64,000 nt of DNA, taken from contig NZ_OBEI01000003.1 in NCBI RefSeq assembly GCF_900215515.1, forward strand, positions 1-64,000, given 5' to 3'. The DNA comes from Persephonella hydrogeniphila (GTDB lineage: Bacteria; Aquificota; Aquificia; Aquificales; Hydrogenothermaceae). A program made the translations under genes and the position numbers. Position 1 is the stretch's first letter. Every line of letters starts with the position of its first letter. This document shows positions 9,569 to 56,800 of the stretch, piece by piece. The notes below the pieces were generated by a model that worked only from the letters and a program-made list of their open reading frames with translations, was not told where the DNA came from and made no database searches.

Positions 9569-10033
9569 CTACCCCCCAGCTATTTCTATAAGTTCCATTA
9601 ATGCTTTATCCCAATCTTTTTTATCTTTAAAGTGTTTATAGGCATATATTATTAACTTTGCTTTTATTTCGGGTTTTAGTTCCTTCCCAAGTTTTTTTTC
9701 GGCATTCTCAAGTCCTATTATTATATTTTCTAATAACTTCTCGTCTAATTCTTTCTTTTCCTCTTGGGGCAAAAACATCTCCCCTTTGCCTTCTCGGAGC
9801 CATTCGGGGTTTACGTTGAATTTTTCTTCTATGATTTTTAAAGTTCTGGGAGAAGGATTGGTTTTTCCAGATATATATTCCGAAATAGTAGGTGGCTTAA
9901 CACCTATTTCTTCAGCAAATTTCCTTTGACTCAATCCAAGTGTTTCTAATAATTTTTTGAGCCTACAACCAAAAGAATTTTCCTTATTATCATTAGCTTT
10001 TTCTAAAGTTTTTTCCATTACCGTTTCAACCAT
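9569..10033 (-). CDS. Prophage repressor (XRE-family helix-turn-helix)
   Basis: 154 residues. A canonical helix-turn-helix domain spans about residues 33-90 (G-L-S-Q-R-K-F-A-E-E-I-G-V, then P-T-I-S-E-Y-I-S-G-K-T-N-P-S), continuing with F-N-V-N-P-E-W-L-R-E-G-K-G-E-M-F. A helical C-terminal part probably oligomerises. There is no LexA-type peptidase motif, so release is unlikely to be RecA-driven. It is divergent from the Cro/Ner-like gene and faces a cluster of operator-like repeats. It should keep the transposition genes silent. Confidence 0.85.
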   Translation of the reverse strand: MVETVMEKTLEKANDNKENSFGCRLKKLLETLGLSQRKFAEEIGVKPPTISEYISGKTNPSPRTLKIIEEKFNVNPEWLREGKGEMFLPQEEKKELDEKLLENIIIGLENAEKKLGKELKPEIKAKLIIYAYKHFKDKKDWDKALMELIEIAGG

Positions 10034-10035
10034 AA

Positions 10036-10108
10036 TTAATATTACCTAATAATAAATAAATTACCTATTGACAAGTTAGGTATCCTAACTTATACTTAAT
10101 ATTACCTA
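10036..10108. promoter_or_regulatory. Early promoter and operators between repressor and Cro/Ner-like gene
   Basis: A near-consensus promoter, TTGACA (10068-10073), 17 bases, TATACT (10091-10096), points toward the early genes. The spacer holds a perfect 8-3-8 palindrome, AAGTTAGGTATCCTAACTT (10073-10091). The 13-mer TTAATATTACCTA occurs at 10036-10048 and 10096-10108, 60 bp apart, and ATTACCTA again at 10060. The arrangement means bound repressor would block polymerase directly. Confidence 0.8.
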
Positions 10109-10140
10109 TTATGCAAAATTGCACATAAGGGCTGTAAATA

Positions 10141-11728: not shown

Positions 11729-12029
11729 CCAAAGAAAGAAAAGAACGGCAACTGTTTTATCGTTTATTTCAAGGTGTAAATATTTGGAGATACTTAAGGA
11801 CACTATCGTGGTAGTTCTTTTATTGCTTTTAAAGCTACTTTTTGCCTTTTTGTTAGCCCTGTTATATTTATTTTTCCTTCCTATTTTTACAGGGGTTTTA
11901 TGGCTTATATTCCGATTAGACAATCGTTTTAAATTCCTCCTTGTAATTAAAACTCCAAATGTAAGGATACAAGAAAAAGAAGATAACCCTGTTATATATA
12001 ACACCTCACGAGGCAACAGCCATGCATAA
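11721..12029 (+). CDS. Small membrane protein upstream of the transposase
   Basis: 102 residues: a basic N-terminus (N-Q-R-K-K-R-T-A-T), a long hydrophobic stretch over about 28-65 (V-V-V-L-L-L-L-L-L-K, then L-L-A-L-L-Y-L-F-F-L-P-I-F), and a polar tail. It overlaps the transposase start by eight bases. The end of the gene contains operator copy 3, so part of the C-terminus may be dictated by that DNA site. Function unknown. Confidence 0.45.
   Translation: MINQRKKRTATVLSFISRCKYLEILKDTIVVVLLLLLKLLFAFLLALLYLFFLPIFTGVLWLIFRLDNRFKFLLVIKTPNVRIQEKEDNPVIYNTSRGNSHA
11990..12003. promoter_or_regulatory. Palindromic operator copy 3 (TGTTATATATAACA)
   Basis: The third identical 14-bp palindrome, 18 bp before the transposase ATG. 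Bound protein here could block or recruit RNA polymerase for the transposase operon. Confidence 0.7.
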
Positions 12030-14925
12030 CTTAATCACAGCAAAACAAATAGCACAACTACTTGGTAAAAGCAGACAGGCTATAGAAAAAAGAGCCAAAA
12101 AAGAAGGCTGGAAGTATGAGGAAAGACCTAATCCAAGAGGTGGAAAACCGATTAAATTTTACTACCTTGAGACCCTACCTTCTGACATAAAATCAGCACT
12201 TGAGCAATGCAACCAGTTCCCGCTTAGCAATGCAACTTTCAATGGAAAGTGGGAACCAGAAAAGTTCTCACTAAACAAAGCCAATGCAACCGAAAGCGGG
12301 AACCAAAGTGGGAACCAAAATGAAACCCTTGAAAATAAAAGCTCTGACAATGCAACCAGTGAGAAAAATAAAACTGAAAGTGTAAACTTAACCAATGCAA
12401 CCGATGAAAACATTGATATAAAAGAGTTTGCCAATGCAACCTCAATGCAACCAGATAAACTTGATGAAAATTCCAATGCAACCTCTACCAATGAAACCAA
12501 TGCAACCAATGCAACCGAAAGTGGGAACCAAAGTGGGAACTGTAATGTGAACCTTGAAAATAAAGAATTTAAAAATGCAACCAATATAAAAAATACAACT
12601 GAAAGTGAGAATAAAAAATGCAACCTTGATAAAAATACCGAAAATAAAGGCTCTAAAAATGCAACCAATAATGCAACCTTAAAAAATAAAAATGCAACCT
12701 GTGAAAAAAATGCAACCGAAAATGCAACCAAAAATGCAACCGAAAGTGGGAACCAATGCAACCAGATTGATGGACTACCAGAATGGATAACAGCTTCTCA
12801 GCTTTCACATATACTTGGGGTTTCAAAAAGAGCTATAAACAAAAGAGCAAATGAAGAAAAGTGGGAATACAGAAAAGTTCCAACTAAAGGCGGTTATCAA
12901 AAACAGTTCAAAACAGATAGCCTACCAGGTGATATATTCAGAAAACTCATTCTAAAGCTTACAAACCAATATTCAGACCTGCCTGAAGAATTCGTTCCAC
13001 GCTTTTCAACCAAATCGTTAGAAGAGCTTAAAGAATGTATGAGACTTTATATGATAGCTCCAGACCAGCATAAAAAAGAAGCCGACGCAAAACTTGCAAT
13101 AATAAAAGCATACGAAACATTCAGACAAAGAAGCTCAGATCTAAAAGAAGGAGAAGCTAAGAGCCTATTTATAAAACTATTCAACCAGGGCAAAATCTCT
13201 GTTCCAGAAGCCTATGAAGTAGGTATAGACCAGATAACTCTAAAAACATTCTACAAATGGCTTGAAGATTACAACCTAAACGGCTTATACGGACTACTTC
13301 CTAAACACATACAAAAAGGCAGAAAATCAAAAATCACCCCAGAAATGATAAAGATAATCTGGGCACAGATAGGAAAAGGAATAACCAGAGGAAAGAAAAT
13401 ATACGAAGCCCTCAAATACCACAAATTAAAGGGTGATATAAAAGAAGACCTGCCATCTTATGCTTCATTTATGAGATTTTACCAAAAATTCAAAAGAGAA
13501 AATGACGCAAAAATCAAAATGATTTTAGAACCTGACAAATTCCGTTCAGAGTATATGCCAGCATTTGGAGACCAGACAGAGCAATACAAAGCAGAGTATT
13601 ACGGACAAGTTTTAATGCTTGACGCAACAAAAGGCGATGTAATGTGTAGATGGAAAGAAGAAGTAGACGGCAAATTAATAGAAAAAACAAAAAGACTAAC
13701 CCTTACAATTTTCATAGATGTTTATTCAAGAGACATCAGATTTGCACTATCAGAAAGAGAAAACAGCTATGTTGTAGTAGATAGCCTGCTTAGAAACTGG
13801 CTTTTAGATGTTGGAGTTCCTGAGCTTATCATTACAGATAATGGCTCAGTTTACAAATCTAAACACTTCCAGCAAGTTTCTAACCGTTTCAATATAAAAA
13901 TTTTATACACACAAGCCTATTCTCCAGAGCAAAAAGCTATAGTAGAAAGAGCTTTTGGAACTATAGCAACACAGTTTTTTGAAACTTTAGAGGGATACAT
14001 CGGACACAATGTTGAGCAAAGAAAAGCAATAGAAAGCCGTAAAAAATGGGCAACAAAACTTTATAAAGATGATAGCTTTTCTGTAGAAATTTTACTGTCT
14101 CCTGAACAGCTCCAAGAAAGAATTGAAGAATACCTTGAAAAAAGATACAGAAAAGAAAGACACAGTTTCGGAATTGTTGAAGAGCTTATTGCAAAATCTC
14201 CAAAACTTTCACCTAAAATCACAGACGAAAGAACACTTGACATACTCCTTGGAGAAGAACACAGGAGAAAACTTACAAACAAAGGAATCAGGCTTAATAA
14301 CAGAATATATGTTTCAGATAAGCTCATTGATTACTACCTTGAAAAAGGTAAAGAAAGCTGGGTAATTGTCAGGGAAGACATATCAGATATTAGAAGAATT
14401 TATGTCTATGACACAAAAGGTCAATTTATCTGTGAAGCATTTGATACAAGAGGATTATCTGAAGAAATAAAAGCATCAGTAGCTAAAAAAGCACATAAAA
14501 AAGCCCTCAGAAGTGCAAAAGAAGAAAGGAAGAAAATCAAACAATTTACAGAAGAATACTCAAGCACTCCTTACGAAATTATGCTTACCGGTTGGCAAGA
14601 ACCTAAAAAACAAAATAACCAAGATACAAAAGTTATCCAGTTCCCAAGACCACAGCAAGAATTTGAAAACGAAGAAATCAAAGTTGCCAAAAAGCTTGCA
14701 GATGAAAAACAGGAAAAACAAGAACTGGCAAAAGAACAAACTCAAAACTATACATCAGCTATTCAAAGAGCTTATGCACTATTTGACCTTATAGAAGAAG
14801 GAAAACCTATATCTGCAGAAGACTATGAATTCTTAAAAGAATACAGCAAAACAGAAGAATACAAAGAACATAAGAATATGGGAGTATTCCCTGATCTTGA
14901 TGAGATGGAAATAAAAATCGCATAA
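12022..14925 (+). CDS. MuA-type DDE transposase with duplicated DNA-binding domain
   Basis: 967 residues, much longer than Mu MuA (663). Residues 1-60 form a Mu-type winged-helix domain (I-T-A-K-Q-I-A-Q-L-L-G-K-S-R); a second copy lies at about 252-315 (I-T-A-S-Q-L-S-H-I-L-G-V-S-K). Between them is a 180-residue N-A-T/S-G-N-Q low-complexity linker. The catalytic triad is D534 (V-L-M-L-D-A-T), D606 (I-I-T-D-N-G-S) and E642 (A-I-V-E-R-A-F), with the usual 35 residues between the last two. A C-terminal barrel (about 745-800) and a charged tail, possibly the MuB/ClpX contact, follow. It would join phage ends to target DNA and drive replicative transposition. Confidence 0.95.
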   Translation: MHNLITAKQIAQLLGKSRQAIEKRAKKEGWKYEERPNPRGGKPIKFYYLETLPSDIKSALEQCNQFPLSNATFNGKWEPEKFSLNKANATESGNQSGNQNETLENKSSDNATSEKNKTESVNLTNATDENIDIKEFANATSMQPDKLDENSNATSTNETNATNATESGNQSGNCNVNLENKEFKNATNIKNTTESENKKCNLDKNTENKGSKNATNNATLKNKNATCEKNATENATKNATESGNQCNQIDGLPEWITASQLSHILGVSKRAINKRANEEKWEYRKVPTKGGYQKQFKTDSLPGDIFRKLILKLTNQYSDLPEEFVPRFSTKSLEELKECMRLYMIAPDQHKKEADAKLAIIKAYETFRQRSSDLKEGEAKSLFIKLFNQGKISVPEAYEVGIDQITLKTFYKWLEDYNLNGLYGLLPKHIQKGRKSKITPEMIKIIWAQIGKGITRGKKIYEALKYHKLKGDIKEDLPSYASFMRFYQKFKRENDAKIKMILEPDKFRSEYMPAFGDQTEQYKAEYYGQVLMLDATKGDVMCRWKEEVDGKLIEKTKRLTLTIFIDVYSRDIRFALSERENSYVVVDSLLRNWLLDVGVPELIITDNGSVYKSKHFQQVSNRFNIKILYTQAYSPEQKAIVERAFGTIATQFFETLEGYIGHNVEQRKAIESRKKWATKLYKDDSFSVEILLSPEQLQERIEEYLEKRYRKERHSFGIVEELIAKSPKLSPKITDERTLDILLGEEHRRKLTNKGIRLNNRIYVSDKLIDYYLEKGKESWVIVREDISDIRRIYVYDTKGQFICEAFDTRGLSEEIKASVAKKAHKKALRSAKEERKKIKQFTEEYSSTPYEIMLTGWQEPKKQNNQDTKVIQFPRPQQEFENEEIKVAKKLADEKQEKQELAKEQTQNYTSAIQRAYALFDLIEEGKPISAEDYEFLKEYSKTEEYKEHKNMGVFPDLDEMEIKIA
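12207..12765 (+). repeat. Nineteen copies of ATGCAAC(C/T) within the transposase gene
   Basis: I count 19 occurrences of ATGCAAC in about 560 bp, nearly all followed by C. Fifteen are read as N-A-T, three as C-N (at the first copy, near 12618 and the last copy) and one as M-Q-P (near 12444), so all three frames are used. GGGAACC(A/T) units are interspersed. The pattern suggests selection or expansion of the DNA motif rather than of one peptide. Confidence 0.85.
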
Positions 14926-15296: not shown

Positions 15297-15572
15297 ATGA
15301 CAAAAGCAGAGCTAATTGCAAAAATGGCTGCACAAGCCGGCGTTTCGAAAGCATCAGCAGAAAGATGTTTAAATGGATTTGTTAATGCTATTACGGAAGC
15401 TCTGGAAAAAGGAGAAAGAGTAGCAATTCCAAATTTAGGCGTTTTCAATGTAAAAGAAAAAGCTGCCAGAACCGGTAGAAATCCAAGAACCGGTGAAGTA
15501 GTTCAAATACCGGCAAGGAAAGCAGTAAAGTTCTCACCATCAGCAGTTTTAAAGAAAAAAGTTAATTCATAA
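15297..15572 (+). CDS. Phage-encoded HU-like DNA-bending protein
   Basis: 91 residues, the standard HU length, with M-T-K-A-E-L-I-A-K-M-A-A-Q-A-G-V and the arm signature G-R-N-P-R-T-G-E-V. It is strikingly similar to the host HU at 50308-50580: the first 30 residues and the arm region are nearly the same. HU is needed for Mu transpososome assembly, so a private copy beside the transposase makes sense, and recruitment from a host like this one is likely. A terminator follows at once. Confidence 0.95.
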   Translation: MTKAELIAKMAAQAGVSKASAERCLNGFVNAITEALEKGERVAIPNLGVFNVKEKAARTGRNPRTGEVVQIPARKAVKFSPSAVLKKKVNS

Positions 15573-16041: not shown

Positions 16042-16060
16042 GGGGAAATACAATGCGTAA
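16023..16060 (+). repeat. Duplicated gene-junction sequence, copy 2
   Basis: Counterpart of 10455-10494: it runs from AATTGCAAATAA through TTAGGGGGAAA to CAATGCGTAA. Here it joins the small upstream gene to muB. Confidence 0.75.
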
Positions 16061-16775
16061 GGACAAGTTTATCACAAGCATATCAAACGTGGCAACTTTT
16101 CTTGAAGTAGTAAATTTTTTAAGAAAAGCTCCAGATTACAGCCCCAAAATTGGTGTAATTACCGCAACCTATGGAATAGGAAAAACTGAAACCTGTACAT
16201 GGTATTACACACAAAACTTGAAAAACACAATCTATATCTCCATCACAGCCTCTATGAACACAAAAGACATATTTGAAGAGATACTTTTTGAACTTGGAGA
16301 AGCTCCAAAAGGAAATCTGAACAGAATTTTCAAAAGAATTGTTGACCTTATAAATCTCCGTGAGGAACCACCATTAATACTCCTTGATGAATCAAATAGA
16401 CTTGCAAATAAAGAAAGAGCAGTAGAAATGCTTAGAGATGTGCATGATCTTACAGGTAGTGCTATTTGTCTGGTAGGTTCTCCGGAGTTCCTTCCAACAA
16501 TCAGAAAATACCACGCATTTTACTCCAGAGTAAGAATAGAAAGAGTCTTAAAACCATTAACTCTCAAAGATGTAAAAAAGCTTACAAAAGAGCTTGTAGA
16601 AACAGTATCTCTTACAGACGATGCAATATCAGTTCTGAAAGAAAAAACAAACGGAAACACCAGAAGAATAGTAATCACCCTTGGGGCTGTTGAGGAATAC
16701 GCAAGGGCAAATCAAAAGGAAGTAATTGATGCATCAGATATTAAAAAAATCTTTGCATTTAAAGCCGAGGAGTAA
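16053..16775 (+). CDS. MuB-type AAA+ ATPase, target-DNA activator
   Basis: 240 residues. Walker A is T-A-T-Y-G-I-G-K-T (through T45) and Walker B is L-I-L-L-D-E-S-N-R (D112, E113). L-V-G-S-P-E-F fits sensor 1, and N-T-R-R-I lies in the late helical part. It is shorter than Mu B (312) because the N-terminal DNA-binding region is reduced; the next gene's winged helices may fill that role. It should polymerise on target DNA, deliver it to the transposase and protect phage DNA from self-insertion. Confidence 0.9.
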   Translation: MRKDKFITSISNVATFLEVVNFLRKAPDYSPKIGVITATYGIGKTETCTWYYTQNLKNTIYISITASMNTKDIFEEILFELGEAPKGNLNRIFKRIVDLINLREEPPLILLDESNRLANKERAVEMLRDVHDLTGSAICLVGSPEFLPTIRKYHAFYSRVRIERVLKPLTLKDVKKLTKELVETVSLTDDAISVLKEKTNGNTRRIVITLGAVEEYARANQKEVIDASDIKKIFAFKAEE

Positions 16776-26480: not shown

Positions 26481-26535
26481 CTAATAAAAATTTAAAGCTT
26501 TTAACTGAAAAATGCAATAGAATATAAGCAAAAAA

Positions 26536-26701
26536 TTTCTAATTTATTTTGAGAATTTTATAAAAAGTTGCAAAAAAGATTAGAAATTTTCCGAAAAATT
26601 TCTAAAGTATTTTGAGATTTTTTATTTACGTTTCTTTACATTTTTTTACGTTTTCTTACTTTTCTAATTTATTTTGCAACAAATTCTAAATTTTTTTGCA
26701 A
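26536..26701 (+). repeat. Four 19-bp repeats at the proposed right prophage end
   Basis: TTTCTAATTTATTTTGAGA (26536-26554), TTTCTAAAGTATTTTGAGA (26599-26617), TTTCTAATTTATTTTGCAA (26661-26679) and ATTCTAAATTTTTTTGCAA (26683-26701). Spacings are 63, 62 and 22 bp, that is about six, six and two helical turns. An 11-bp inverted repeat (TTAGAAATTTT/AAAATTTCTAA) spans 26580-26605. This looks like a set of transposase end-binding sites, with the 22-bp pair nearest the end. Confidence 0.6.
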
Positions 26702-26727
26702 TGTTATAAAAATCTGGGAAAAGTCTC

Positions 26728-26760
26728 CTACAGGAAGCTGATAAGGTTGGAGTGTTATAA
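26728..26760 (+). pseudogene. Displaced last codons of the interrupted gene
   Basis: CTACA and the following bases continue the frame of the left flank: C-A-G completes the codon after CTA, then E-A-D-K-V-G-V-L and stop TAA at 26758. Codon choice fits host genes. The stop is 62 bp before the cas2 ATG. Confidence 0.45.
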
Positions 26761-26822
26761 ACTTTATAAACACTTTTTAAGAGAAGAGATTTATAAACCT
26801 TTTGTTGCAAATTGGTGAAAAA

Positions 26823-27089
26823 ATGTTTGTTATTCTTGTTTATGATGCAAATGAAAAAAGAGTTCAGAAATTTCATAAAGCATGCAAAAAATACCTTACA
26901 TGGGTTCAAAATAGTGTCTTTGAAGGTGAAATAACAGATGCTGCTTTAAGACTTTTAAAAGATGAACTAAAGGAAATAATGGATGATAAAGAGGATAGTA
27001 TTTTGATATACAAATTCAGAACAAAGAAATATTATGAAAGGGAAAGTATTGGCGTTAAGAAACCTTCCCACGAAGACATGTTCTTTTAG
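26823..27089 (+). CDS. cas2: Cas2, CRISPR spacer-acquisition protein
   Basis: 88 residues from ATG 26823, with GGTGA four bases upstream; an earlier TTG at 26802 lacks a site. M-F-V-I-L-V-Y-D8-A-N is the Cas2 ferredoxin-like opening with its conserved Asp, followed by V-F-E-G-E-I-T and S-I-L-I-Y-K-F. Cas2 dimers bridge Cas1 dimers during spacer insertion. No cas1 or effector gene is in the window, so they must lie to the left of the prophage or elsewhere. The leader and array begin downstream. Confidence 0.95.
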   Translation: MFVILVYDANEKRVQKFHKACKKYLTWVQNSVFEGEITDAALRLLKDELKEIMDDKEDSILIYKFRTKKYYERESIGVKKPSHEDMFF

Positions 27090-27424: not shown

Positions 27425-28466
27425 GTTTTTAGAGTACCTATAAGGAATTGAAACAGATGTAAACCGGTTCTTTCAGCATTTTCATAAAAGCAAGTTTTTA
27501 GAGTACCTATAAGGAATTGAAACTAACGCACCGCCTTCTCAATCTTGCTCACGGCAAAGTTTTTAGAGTACCTATAAGGAATTGAAACACATCTAACTCC
27601 CACTTTCTGCAATAGAAACTTGCTGTTTTTAGAGTACCTATAAGGAATTGAAACTTCTTCTCATCATTTAAATTTTCATCTAAATGATCCGCGTTTTTAG
27701 AGTACCTATAAGGAATTGAAACTAAAAATCTTTGAAATTCATAAATCCCTTTTTGACAGTTTTTAGAGTACCTATAAGGAATTGAAACGCTAACATACAA
27801 GTAGTATGGGATACAACTATTACAAAAGTTTTTAGAGTACCTATAAGGAATTGAAACATGATTTTGGAACAATGCCATTTGGCTATTTGAAGATTGAGTT
27901 TTTAGAGTACCTATAAGGAATTGAAACGATCCAACATCAAAATCCCCACTTCCTAGAGAAAATTGTGTTTTTAGAGTACCTATAAGGAATTGAAACTATC
28001 AATCCCTATTTCTTTGATTTCTTCTGGCGAAGTTTTTAGAGTACCTATAAGGAATTGAAACTGACGGATATTTGTATATACTTTTCCATATAGTTTGAGG
28101 GTTTTTAGAGTACCTATAAGGAATTGAAACAAAAATTCAAAAACTCCACAGGAGTTCATTTCAAAATATCGTTTTTAGAGTACCTATAAGGAATTGAAAC
28201 TCTCCATGTTCACTCCTCCTGTTCCCTGTTGTCGCGGTTTTTAGAGTACCTATAAGGAATTGAAACTCACTATAACAATAGGGTTTATCGTTTTAAAGCT
28301 GGGTTTTTAGAGTACCTATAAGGAATTGAAACTTCTTTCTCTTTTCCTCATTTTACCTGCGGCATTTGCGTTTTTAGAGTACCTATAAGGAATTGAAACT
28401 ACTGCTAAAAAATCCCATTTCATTTCCTCCATCTTAGTTTTTAGAGTGCCTATAAGGAATTGAAAT
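27425..28466 (+). CRISPR. CRISPR array, 16 repeats, 15 spacers
   Basis: The 30-bp repeat begins GTTTTTAGAGTACC and ends AAGGAATTGAAAC. Copies start at 27425, 27494, 27559, 27625, 27693, 27759, 27828, 27898, 27967, 28032, 28101, 28171, 28237, 28303, 28370 and 28437. Spacers are 34-40 bp. The last repeat is degenerate (GTGCC, final T), marking the distal end and showing that transcription and growth run left to right. The repeat type ending GAAAC is common to thermophile type I-B and III systems. By eye I found no spacer matching the prophage. Confidence 0.98.
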
Positions 28467-28573
28467 TAACAACATCTGAACTTAAAAAAATATCTAAAAA
28501 TTTGTGCAAAGTTTTTACTTATTTGTTATGCTTTTATTAAGATTTTCTAATGTATGCATATAGGAGAAATAAA

Positions 28574-53869: not shown

Positions 53870-56800
53870 ATGAGATTTTTTAGAGAGCTGCTTGACAGTC
53901 TTATATCAATAGAGTTTATGCTTCTTCTTACAGTATTATTTGCATTTTCTATCGGCTTTGCAACATTTATAGAAAATGATTTTGGAAGTGAGACAGCATG
54001 GGCAGTAGTTTACGGTGCAAGATGGTTTGAGATTTTGTGGATTTTACTTGCTGTTAATCTTGTAGGAAACATTGTTAAATACAAAATGTGGAAGCCTAGG
54101 AAAATTCCAGCCTTCATATTTCATGTATCTTTTCTTGTTATATTCCTCGGAGCTGCACTGACAAGGTATGCAGGATATGAAGGGGTTATGCACATAAGGG
54201 AAGGATCAAGTTCCAATGAGATTATATCTTCAGATGCTTTTCTTTACATAAAAGCAGATGATGGAGAGAGTTCAGTGGAAAGGGAAAAGAAAGTTTTACT
54301 CTCTGTTCTGGCAAAAAGTATAGTAAATAGATTTGAAGAAAGTATTGATATAAATGGAAAAAAGTTAACAGTTAGATATGTAGATTACTACCCTTTTGCT
54401 GAGAAAAAGATAGTACAGGCTGAAGATGGAAAACCTCTTATTTCTGCGGTTTTTATGACAGACCAGCAGCCTGTCAGTAAAATTCTGGAATATGGGGATG
54501 TTTTCAGATCTGGAAAGCTGATATTCAGTTTTGGAAATCCTGTACAGCAGGATGGTTATGTGTATATCTACCTGAAAAACCAGAAATTTTATATAAGATC
54601 CGACAAAGATATAGAGTATTTTGAGATGAAAACACAGAAAACAGGAAAAATACCTTCTCAAAAGGATACTGTTCTTGAGACAGGTAGAATGTATTCAGTT
54701 GGAGGACTGAATTTTGTAATCAGGGATGTTGTTGCTTCTGGAAAGGTTGATATAACTCCTAAAAAGGATTCAAACCTGAAAGTAAGCGGGAATAAAAGTG
54801 CTCTGATAGTAGAGGTTGAGTACGACGGCATTAAAAAAACAGTAAAGCTGTTAGGCGGAGGTATGAGGGCAAACATAGTAGGAGAGCCTGTTAAACTAAA
54901 AATTAAAGATATAAATATAGAACTAAGATGGGGAGCTAAGCTGATAAAACTACCTTTTGAGATATACCTTAAAGACTTTGTAGTTGAAAAATACCCCGGC
55001 TCGATGCAACCTTCTTCCTATGAAAGTGATGTGATTGTAAAAGATCCTGTTAATAAAAAAGAGTTTGAGTACAAAATTTATATGAACCACACACTGGAAT
55101 ACGGAGGTTACAAATTCTTCCAGTCATCTTATGATCCAGATGAAAAAGGGACTATCCTGTCTGTTAATCATGATCCGGGGAAAATACCTACATACATAGG
55201 TTATACACTTCTCGCTCTGGGACTTTTCCTAAATCTCCTTAACCCTTACTCAAGATTTGGTAAACTTGCGAGACTAAAAGTGGATAAAATTGTAACCGGT
55301 TTGCTGCTGCTGTTTATCACAGGCTACGCTGTTGCAGAGGAAAATCCCCGTAATATGCCGTTAGAAAAAATTATTCAGGAAGTCAAAAAAATAAACAAAG
55401 AGCATGCAGATAGATTTGGGACTCTGATAACACAGTCTTTTGACGGAAGGTTAGAGCCTGTAGACACACTTTCTATAGAAGTAATGAACAAAATATCAAA
55501 GAGAAGGTCTTTTTTTGGGCTTGACCACAATCAGATAGTTTTAGGAATGCTTGTTTTACCAAGATACTGGCAGATGATACCTGTCATAAAAGTATCCCAT
55601 CCGGCAGTTAAAAAGATTTTAGGAATACCTATGGAAGATAAATACTTTCCTTTTTACAAAGCCTTTGATGATGAAGGAAATTACAAGCTGTACGAAGCTG
55701 TCGAGCTTGCCAGAAGAAAAAAACCTGCCCAGAGGAATCAGTTTGACAAAGAAGTACTGAAGATTGATGAAAGATTGAATATTATGTATATGGTGTTTAC
55801 AGGAGAGTTATTCCGTATATTTCCCTTGAAGGGAGATCCTAATCACACATGGTACAGTCCCAAATCTGCTGTTGAAAAATTTCCTAAGGAGGAAGCAGAA
55901 AAAGTAAGACTTTTCCTTGTGGGATATTTTGCTTCTGTAGAAAAAGGTATTAAAGATGGAGACTGGTCTCTTGCAGATAAAGTTCTTGAAAAGATAAGAG
56001 AATACCAGAAAATAAATGGTGCAGAGATTTACCCATCAGAAACAAAGATAAAACTGGAAATTCTTTACAACAAGCTGAACATATTTGAAAGACTCATATT
56101 TGTCTATCTTTTTGCTGGGTTTACTCTTCTTGGACTTATATTCGCAAAGCTGATAAAACCATCTCTAAATCTGAAAATGCCAACTGTAGTAGCTGTAAGC
56201 ATTCTTGTAATTGGATTTTTACTCCATACGTTTAATTTGGGTTTGAGATGGTATCTATCAGGTCATGCTCCGTGGAGTAACGGCTACGAATCTATGATAT
56301 ACATAGCATGGACTATAGTACTTGCAGGTATTATTTTTGCAAGGCAATCTCCATTTGCTGTAGCATCAACAGGCATTCTCGCCGGTATAACGCTGTTTGT
56401 AGCTCATCTAAGCTGGATGGATCCCCAAATAACAACAATAGTTCCAGTTCTTAAGTCCTACTGGCTTACAATCCATGTATCTGTTATAACAGCCAGTTAC
56501 GGATTCTTAGGTCTTTCTGCCCTGTTAGGTCTGATATCCCTTGTTCTTTTTATTATAAGAAATCCTAAAAAACAGGACGAAAAACAGAGACAGATTGAGA
56601 TATCAATTCTTGAGGCAACAAGGATAAATGAGATGTCTATGATTTTAGGACTTTCTCTTCTTACTGTAGGTAACTTTTTAGGGGGAGTATGGGCGAATGA
56701 GTCATGGGGTAGATACTGGGGATGGGATCCTAAAGAAACCTGGGCTCTTGTGACCATACTGGTTTATACAGCTGTAATACACACAAGGCTGGTTCCTTAC

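What the first reader, a model, noticed from the sequence alone, without database searches (positions are those of the whole stretch)
12207..12765. ATGCAACC repeated 19 times in all three reading frames inside the transposase gene
Fifteen copies read N-A-T, three read C-N and one reads M-Q-P. Frame independence argues that the DNA word is being kept or amplified. It lies between the two copies of the DNA-binding domain. Mu has an internal enhancer bound by the N-terminal domain of MuA, placed elsewhere. This array may be an enhancer, a self-binding site or a titration device carried in the transposase's own gene.
Basis: partly seen in the sequence, partly recalled or inferred. Interest (0 to 1): 0.85.

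Follow-up and report, generated by a model that had tools for sequence, protein, structure and literature searches.

The report
Transposase gene carrying its own DNA-site array
A jumping phage of heat-loving bacteria carries, inside its transposase gene, dozens of copies of two short DNA words that evolution keeps as DNA rather than as protein, most likely docking sites for the transposase's own DNA-binding domains, so that the enzyme and its switch travel as one unit.

Summary
The array is real. Exact ATGCAACC occurs 18 times (not 19) at 12207-12763; AATGCAAC occurs 19 times, and only 24 other ATGCAACC exist in the 2.0-Mb genome. Relatives decide the DNA-versus-peptide question. In an 81%-identical transposase, word A shows 0/88 base changes, while the NN core of word B changed at 14/16 positions, GG to TC in every aligned GG-type copy, in different reading frames and on both strands. 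A 48%-identical relative keeps word A and has NN = TT. In a second transposase family NN switched CC to CG together with the transposase's own helix-turn-helix. The array encodes a predicted disordered linker between two winged-helix domains that match MuA's enhancer-binding domain I-alpha. Best explanation: a transposase-binding, enhancer-like array inside the transposase gene. DNA-level function is near certain, self-binding likely (about 0.75), the enhancer role inferred. It is not a classical Mu enhancer: it lies mid-prophage, not in the operator.

The parts
12022..14925 (+). Mu-type transposase gene, 967 aa; holds the array near its 5' end
   Evidence: ORF; Pfam rve, Mu-transpos_C, HTH_Tnp_Mu_1; PHROG transposase 3.6e-90
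12022..12219 (+). First winged-helix domain (DBD1), like MuA I-alpha; its proposed word is A
   Evidence: 1TNS match E 5.7e-4; fold model pLDDT 84-93
12206..12763 (+). Word A: AATGCAAC x19 (18 followed by C), all on + strand, in three frames (15 NAT, 3 CN, 1 MQP). ATGCAAC starts: 12207, 12230, 12284, 12350, 12395, 12434, 12445, 12476, 12500, 12509, 12575, 12618, 12659, 12671, 12692, 12710, 12722, 12734, 12756
   Evidence: 0/88 bases changed in relative L008
12216..12753 (.). Word B: AAGYG-NN-AAC with NN=GG, + strand at 12247, 12294, 12306, 12519, 12531, 12744; inverted at 12216 and, as a variant (core AG), at 12264; NN=TA variant at 12378
   Evidence: NN changed at 14/16 bases in L008
12217..12765 (+). 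Linker coded by the array (residues 65-248), predicted disordered
   Evidence: pLDDT about 31 over residues 65-248
12772..12993 (+). Second winged-helix domain (DBD2), like MuA I-alpha; its proposed word is B
   Evidence: Foldseek top hit 1TNS (MuA), third hit 1QPM (Mu repressor DNA-binding domain); 1TNS by sequence, weak
9569..10033 (-). Phage repressor (XRE type), divergent from the early genes
   Evidence: PHROG transcriptional regulator/repressor
10034..10140 (.). Repressor/early operator region; holds neither word
   Evidence: no A or B word there
16053..16775 (+). MuB-like DNA transposition protein
   Evidence: PHROG DNA transposition protein 6.7e-39
26522..26700 (.). Right end of the prophage, with repeats found inverted at the left end; holds neither word

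Best explanation
The array is a dense set of protein-binding DNA sites of two kinds, carried in the transposase gene in the stretch that codes the disordered linker between two MuA I-alpha-like winged-helix domains. Shown: both words are kept as DNA, and the core of word B changes in concert within a phage. Inferred: the readers are the transposase's own two winged-helix domains, DBD1 for word A and DBD2 for word B. Inferred further: binding there works like the Mu transpositional enhancer, loading and positioning transposase before or while the ends are synapsed. Because sites and reader lie in one gene, they are inherited together and can switch specificity in one exchange.
For: (1) Word A: 0/88 changes and 30/30 codons kept between relatives whose flanking sequence differs by about 20%; word A is kept at 48% aa identity in L020. 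(2) Word B core NN is GG here, TC in L008, TT in L020: uniform within each phage apart from rare variants, across frames and orientations. (3) In a second transposase family the array in the gene's 5' part switched CC to CG while the transposase's own HTH fell to 54% identity, beside a wing and later catalytic parts at 92-96%. (4) L149, a Mu-like phage with one such domain, has the same GG word x4 plus an inverted variant in its repressor/Ner intergenic operator region, the classical enhancer place. (5) Both domains match MuA I-alpha 1TNS and fold as winged helices; the array-coded linker is predicted disordered. (6) MuA I-alpha is known to bind the transpositional enhancer (PMC3362531). (7) Neither word occurs at the right end or in the operator, so the array is not an end-binding repeat.
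Against: No binding was measured. Pairing DBD1 with A and DBD2 with B rests on few phages; between the window and L008 DBD2's recognition-helix core is identical although NN changed, with substitutions only around it. The repressor HTH also changed in both pairs, so the repressor is not excluded as reader. The array lies about 23 kb from the left end and 14 kb from the right end, unlike Mu. Word A is always on one strand, so an RNA-level role for A alone is not excluded.
Confidence: 0.6

Rival explanations
1. Autoregulation: transposase (or truncated products of it) binds the array in its own gene and blocks or tunes transcription or holds excess transposase, limiting copy number; the role is operator or titration, not enhancer.
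For: Same site and reader evidence as the best explanation. The array lies inside the transcribed early gene. Nineteen plus about eight sites is many for an enhancer.
Against: In L149 the same word sits in the classical enhancer/operator region, not in the gene. Nothing here shows an effect on transcription.
Confidence: 0.2
2. The sites are read by another phage protein, for example the repressor, and the array is a displaced operator.
For: The repressor's HTH differs in the same two phage pairs in which NN differs.
Against: No word lies at the repressor's own promoter region in the window, L325 or L326. The words are asymmetric, while XRE repressors usually bind palindromes (established knowledge). 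The domain type known to read a Mu enhancer (I-alpha winged helix) is in the transposase, not in this XRE repressor.
Confidence: 0.12
3. Coding-level origin: replication slippage or selection on a hydrophilic N-A-T/S-G-N-Q linker peptide; the word is a by-product.
For: 15 of 19 copies are in the N-A-T frame; the window array is longer than its relative's, so it has probably expanded; the linker is disordered.
Against: Codon null models fail. Words are unchanged across deep divergence while neighbours diverge. Concerted NN change occurs in different frames and in inverted copies. Real N-A-T repeat proteins in other viruses mostly keep one frame.
Confidence: 0.04
4. RNA element: the words act in the mRNA, by structure or by binding an RNA-binding protein.
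For: Inverted B pairs can form a hairpin; 12200-12340 folds at z = -2.65.
Against: The whole array folds like its shuffles, z = -0.82. All direct B copies co-vary in NN, not only pairing partners. Similar words recur in intergenic phage DNA.
Confidence: 0.04

Closest known systems
Mu transpositional enhancer (internal activation sequence) bound by MuA domain I-alpha
   Same: Multiple sites distinct from the end sites; a cognate winged-helix I-alpha domain in the transposase; Mu-type transposable phage with a MuB partner
   Different: Inside the transposase coding sequence, mid-prophage, two different words, about 27 sites, two I-alpha-like domains flanking it; no words in the operator region
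Mu / D108 heteroimmune pair (own knowledge: the repressor and the N-terminus of A differ and each A prefers its own enhancer)
   Same: Site core, transposase N-terminal HTH and repressor HTH change together between near relatives (L325/L326; window/L008)
   Different: Here the sites lie in the same gene as the changing domain
Mu strong gyrase site (SGS)
   Same: Roughly central place in the prophage
   Different: An array of two repeated words with phage-specific cores, not one gyrase site
Phage replication-origin iterons
   Same: AAAGTG-NN-AAC arrays, uniform NN, also occur beside primase-type genes in unrelated phages
   Different: No primase-type gene adjoins this array; these phages have transposase and MuB and are expected to replicate by transposition

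Membership tests
MuA-type phage transposase | Integrase-core (rve) and Mu-transpos_C domains | tested here: met
   Pfam 1.6e-9 and 2.6e-15
MuA-type phage transposase | N-terminal I-alpha winged-helix domain | tested here: met
   Two copies; 1TNS by sequence and fold
MuA-type phage transposase | MuB-like partner gene and head/tail genes in one element | tested here: met
Mu transpositional enhancer (IAS) | Lies in the repressor operator region near the left end | tested here: not met
   No word at 10034-10140; array about 23 kb from the left end
Mu transpositional enhancer (IAS) | Bound by the transposase I-alpha domain | tested here: inconclusive
   Co-variation of word core and HTH; no binding assay
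Mu transpositional enhancer (IAS) | Stimulates transposition in cis | not testable with these tools
   needs a transposition assay
Mu transpositional enhancer (IAS) | IHF site between operators | not tested
   an HU-family gene lies at 15297-15572, but no IHF-site scan was made
Transposon end-binding repeats | The same word at both ends of the element | tested here: not met
   Ends carry other AT-rich repeats; words absent there
Replication-origin iterons | Array beside a replication initiator gene with an AT-rich unwinding region | tested here: inconclusive
   No primase-type gene beside the array; a helicase-like gene at 262-2118 lies 10 kb away

The most novel reading that the evidence does not exclude
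A transposase gene that encodes its own cis-acting enhancer within its coding sequence, so that protein specificity and DNA sites form one self-matched cassette that can switch heteroimmunity by a single exchange. Its sites belong to a broad class (AAAGTG-NN-AAC) in which a two-base core is a phage-specific code read by helix-turn-helix proteins of many phages.
Probability: 0.4. Interest if true: 0.9.

Novelty: new variant of a known kind. Interest (0 to 1): 0.8.

Why it matters
It would show a phage enhancer built into the coding sequence of the enzyme that reads it, under two constraints at once: a disordered protein linker and a DNA site array. The natural pairs (GG/TC/TT; CC/CG) with closely related transposases give a ready test of how a two-base core is read by an I-alpha-type winged helix, and of how transposable phages change immunity without breaking their own transposition.

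Tried and rejected
L013, L021 and L022 are truncated before the array, and other pieces of G121 gave nothing. Eight reference Mu-like phages with transposases have no comparable array. Helical phasing of word A: period 10.7, P 0.003 in the window but not significant in L008 or L020; treated as unproven. RNA structure over the whole array rejected. End-repeat and operator explanations rejected. A tandem-slippage-only origin rejected. The held literature gave no paper on Mu-like prophages of Aquificota with the terms used.

Full report
WHAT IS THERE. The gene at 12022-14925 is a Mu-type transposase (rve, Mu-transpos_C, HTH_Tnp_Mu_1; PHROG transposase) in a Mu-like prophage with a MuB-like gene, tail sheath, capsid, portal and terminase genes. 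Exact ATGCAACC occurs 18 times between 12207 and 12763, and once more in the window at 55004. AATGCAAC occurs 19 times in the array. Reading is 15 N-A-T, 3 C-N, 1 M-Q-P for AATGCAAC. The genome has 42 ATGCAACC in 2.0 Mb, 18 here. Codon null models give 3.6 (rest-of-gene codons) or 10.0 (own codons shuffled) AATGCAAC against 19, never reached in 5000 trials each.

A SECOND WORD. Interspersed is AAGYGGGAAC at 12247, 12294, 12306, 12519, 12531 and 12744, inverted at 12216 and, as a variant, at 12264, with a TA variant at 12378. At 12247 it reads W-E-P, elsewhere mostly S-G-N-Q (and the translation).

RELATIVES. A homologue in another genus of the same family (G024, L008, Hydrogenothermaceae MAG; 81-82% aa) has 12 AATGCAAC and a shorter array. 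Over aligned bases: word A 0/88 changed; B fixed positions 7/64; B core NN 14/16; other array bases 39/174; DBD1 16/180; DBD2 36/203; catalytic part 372/1951. Codons of unchanged residues are kept 30/30 in word A, 45/54 in DBD1, 337/514 in the catalytic part. The B core became TC in every aligned GG-type copy, in two frames and in both inverted copies. DBD1 and the array are better conserved than the rest of the gene, perhaps by recombination, so DBD1 is the fair local control; word A still exceeds it. L020 (48% aa) keeps 10 AATGCAAC and has B with NN = TT, three direct and two inverted by exact match. In 136 Aquificota genomes the paired-A pattern occurs 11 times in the window genome and 8 times in G024, all in these arrays, and at most twice in any other genome.

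THE WORD ELSEWHERE. Scanning viral contigs for paired AAAGYGNNAAC words gave 45 loci in the wider scan; in nearly all, the matched words share one NN, and many loci have further copies in both orientations. Two loci besides this phage are Mu-type. L149 has one I-alpha-like domain and the GG word x4, plus an inverted one-base variant, in the gap between its XRE repressor and Ner-like gene, the place of the classical Mu enhancer. L146/L325 has words AAAGTGCCAAC x5 in the 5' part of its transposase gene, ahead of its single HTH. Its 85%-identical relatives L326/L327 have GTGCGAAC instead, CC having become CG, again including an inverted copy, and a second CG array outside the gene. In this pair the transposase HTH is 54% identical, its wing 92%, the next 150 residues 75% and the later parts 92-96%. 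The Ner-like protein is 98% identical and the repressor's N-terminal part is replaced. Several non-Mu loci have the words beside primase-type genes with C-terminal HTH-like sequences and AT-rich DNA, which look like origin iterons; this is an aside.

DBD1 and DBD2 are 41% identical to each other. Both match MuA I-alpha, 1TNS, by sequence, DBD2 only weakly. The DBD2 model (pLDDT 85) has 1TNS first and the Mu repressor domain 1QPM third among its structural hits. In the N-terminal model both domains are confident and residues 65-248, the array-coded part, are near pLDDT 31. I-alpha binds the transpositional enhancer in Mu, and the linker after it varies freely (PMC3362531). [quoted passage not shown] From own knowledge, Mu and D108 differ in repressor and transposase N-terminus, each transposase preferring its own enhancer; the L325/L326 and window/L008 pairs look alike in this respect.

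HOW IT MOST LIKELY WORKS. Shown: DNA-level constraint; concerted, phage-specific change of the B core; co-change with the transposase HTH in one family. Inferred: DBD1 reads A (both nearly constant between window and L008), DBD2 reads B (both changed). Inferred: the array acts as an enhancer-like loading site. It lies about 23 kb from the left end and 14 kb from the right (estimated on the complete G024 prophage), so it is not placed like the Mu enhancer. The repressor remains a rival reader, because its HTH also differs in both pairs, but the words are absent from its promoter region.

WHY NOT FILED AS A MU ENHANCER. Location in the operator near the left end was tested and not met; binding and cis stimulation could not be tested. 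It is therefore reported as something that works like a Mu enhancer, a new variant of a known kind.

LIMITS. All evidence is comparative. Three phages of the first family and two distinct arrays of the second carry the argument. Helical phasing was suggestive only in the window. RNA folding over the array is ordinary, although one local hairpin is possible.

Noticed in passing
window 26522-27089; L338 1287-2460 (G000:C11); G024:C43: The Mu-like prophage splits cas1 from cas2 in two genera: cas1 is followed by the left end and cas2 follows the right end. Cas1 proteins are only 51% identical overall, but the 3' part of cas1 is about 84% identical DNA, so one insertion spread with its flanks may explain it.
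   Followed up: partly
L145, L147, L148, L150, L151, L290, L298, L303, L310, L311, L321, L305, L289, L300: Arrays of AAGTG-NN-AAC with NN uniform per phage, often beside primase-type genes and AT-rich DNA; a possible widespread class of phage origin or operator sites with a two-base code.
   Followed up: partly
L326 388-460: A second CG-word array outside the transposase gene, resembling a copy of the gene's 5' end.
   Followed up: partly
G024:C43, G24rc 28489-28537: A single CRISPR-repeat-like stretch upstream of the MuB-like gene of the related prophage, similar to repeats at window 28299-28465.
   Followed up: no
window 27549-28470: CRISPR array with repeat ending GGAATTGAAAC, downstream of cas2.
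   Followed up: no
window 12206-12763: Word A spacing peaks at a 10.7-base period in the window array (P 0.003) but not significantly in the relatives.
   Followed up: partly
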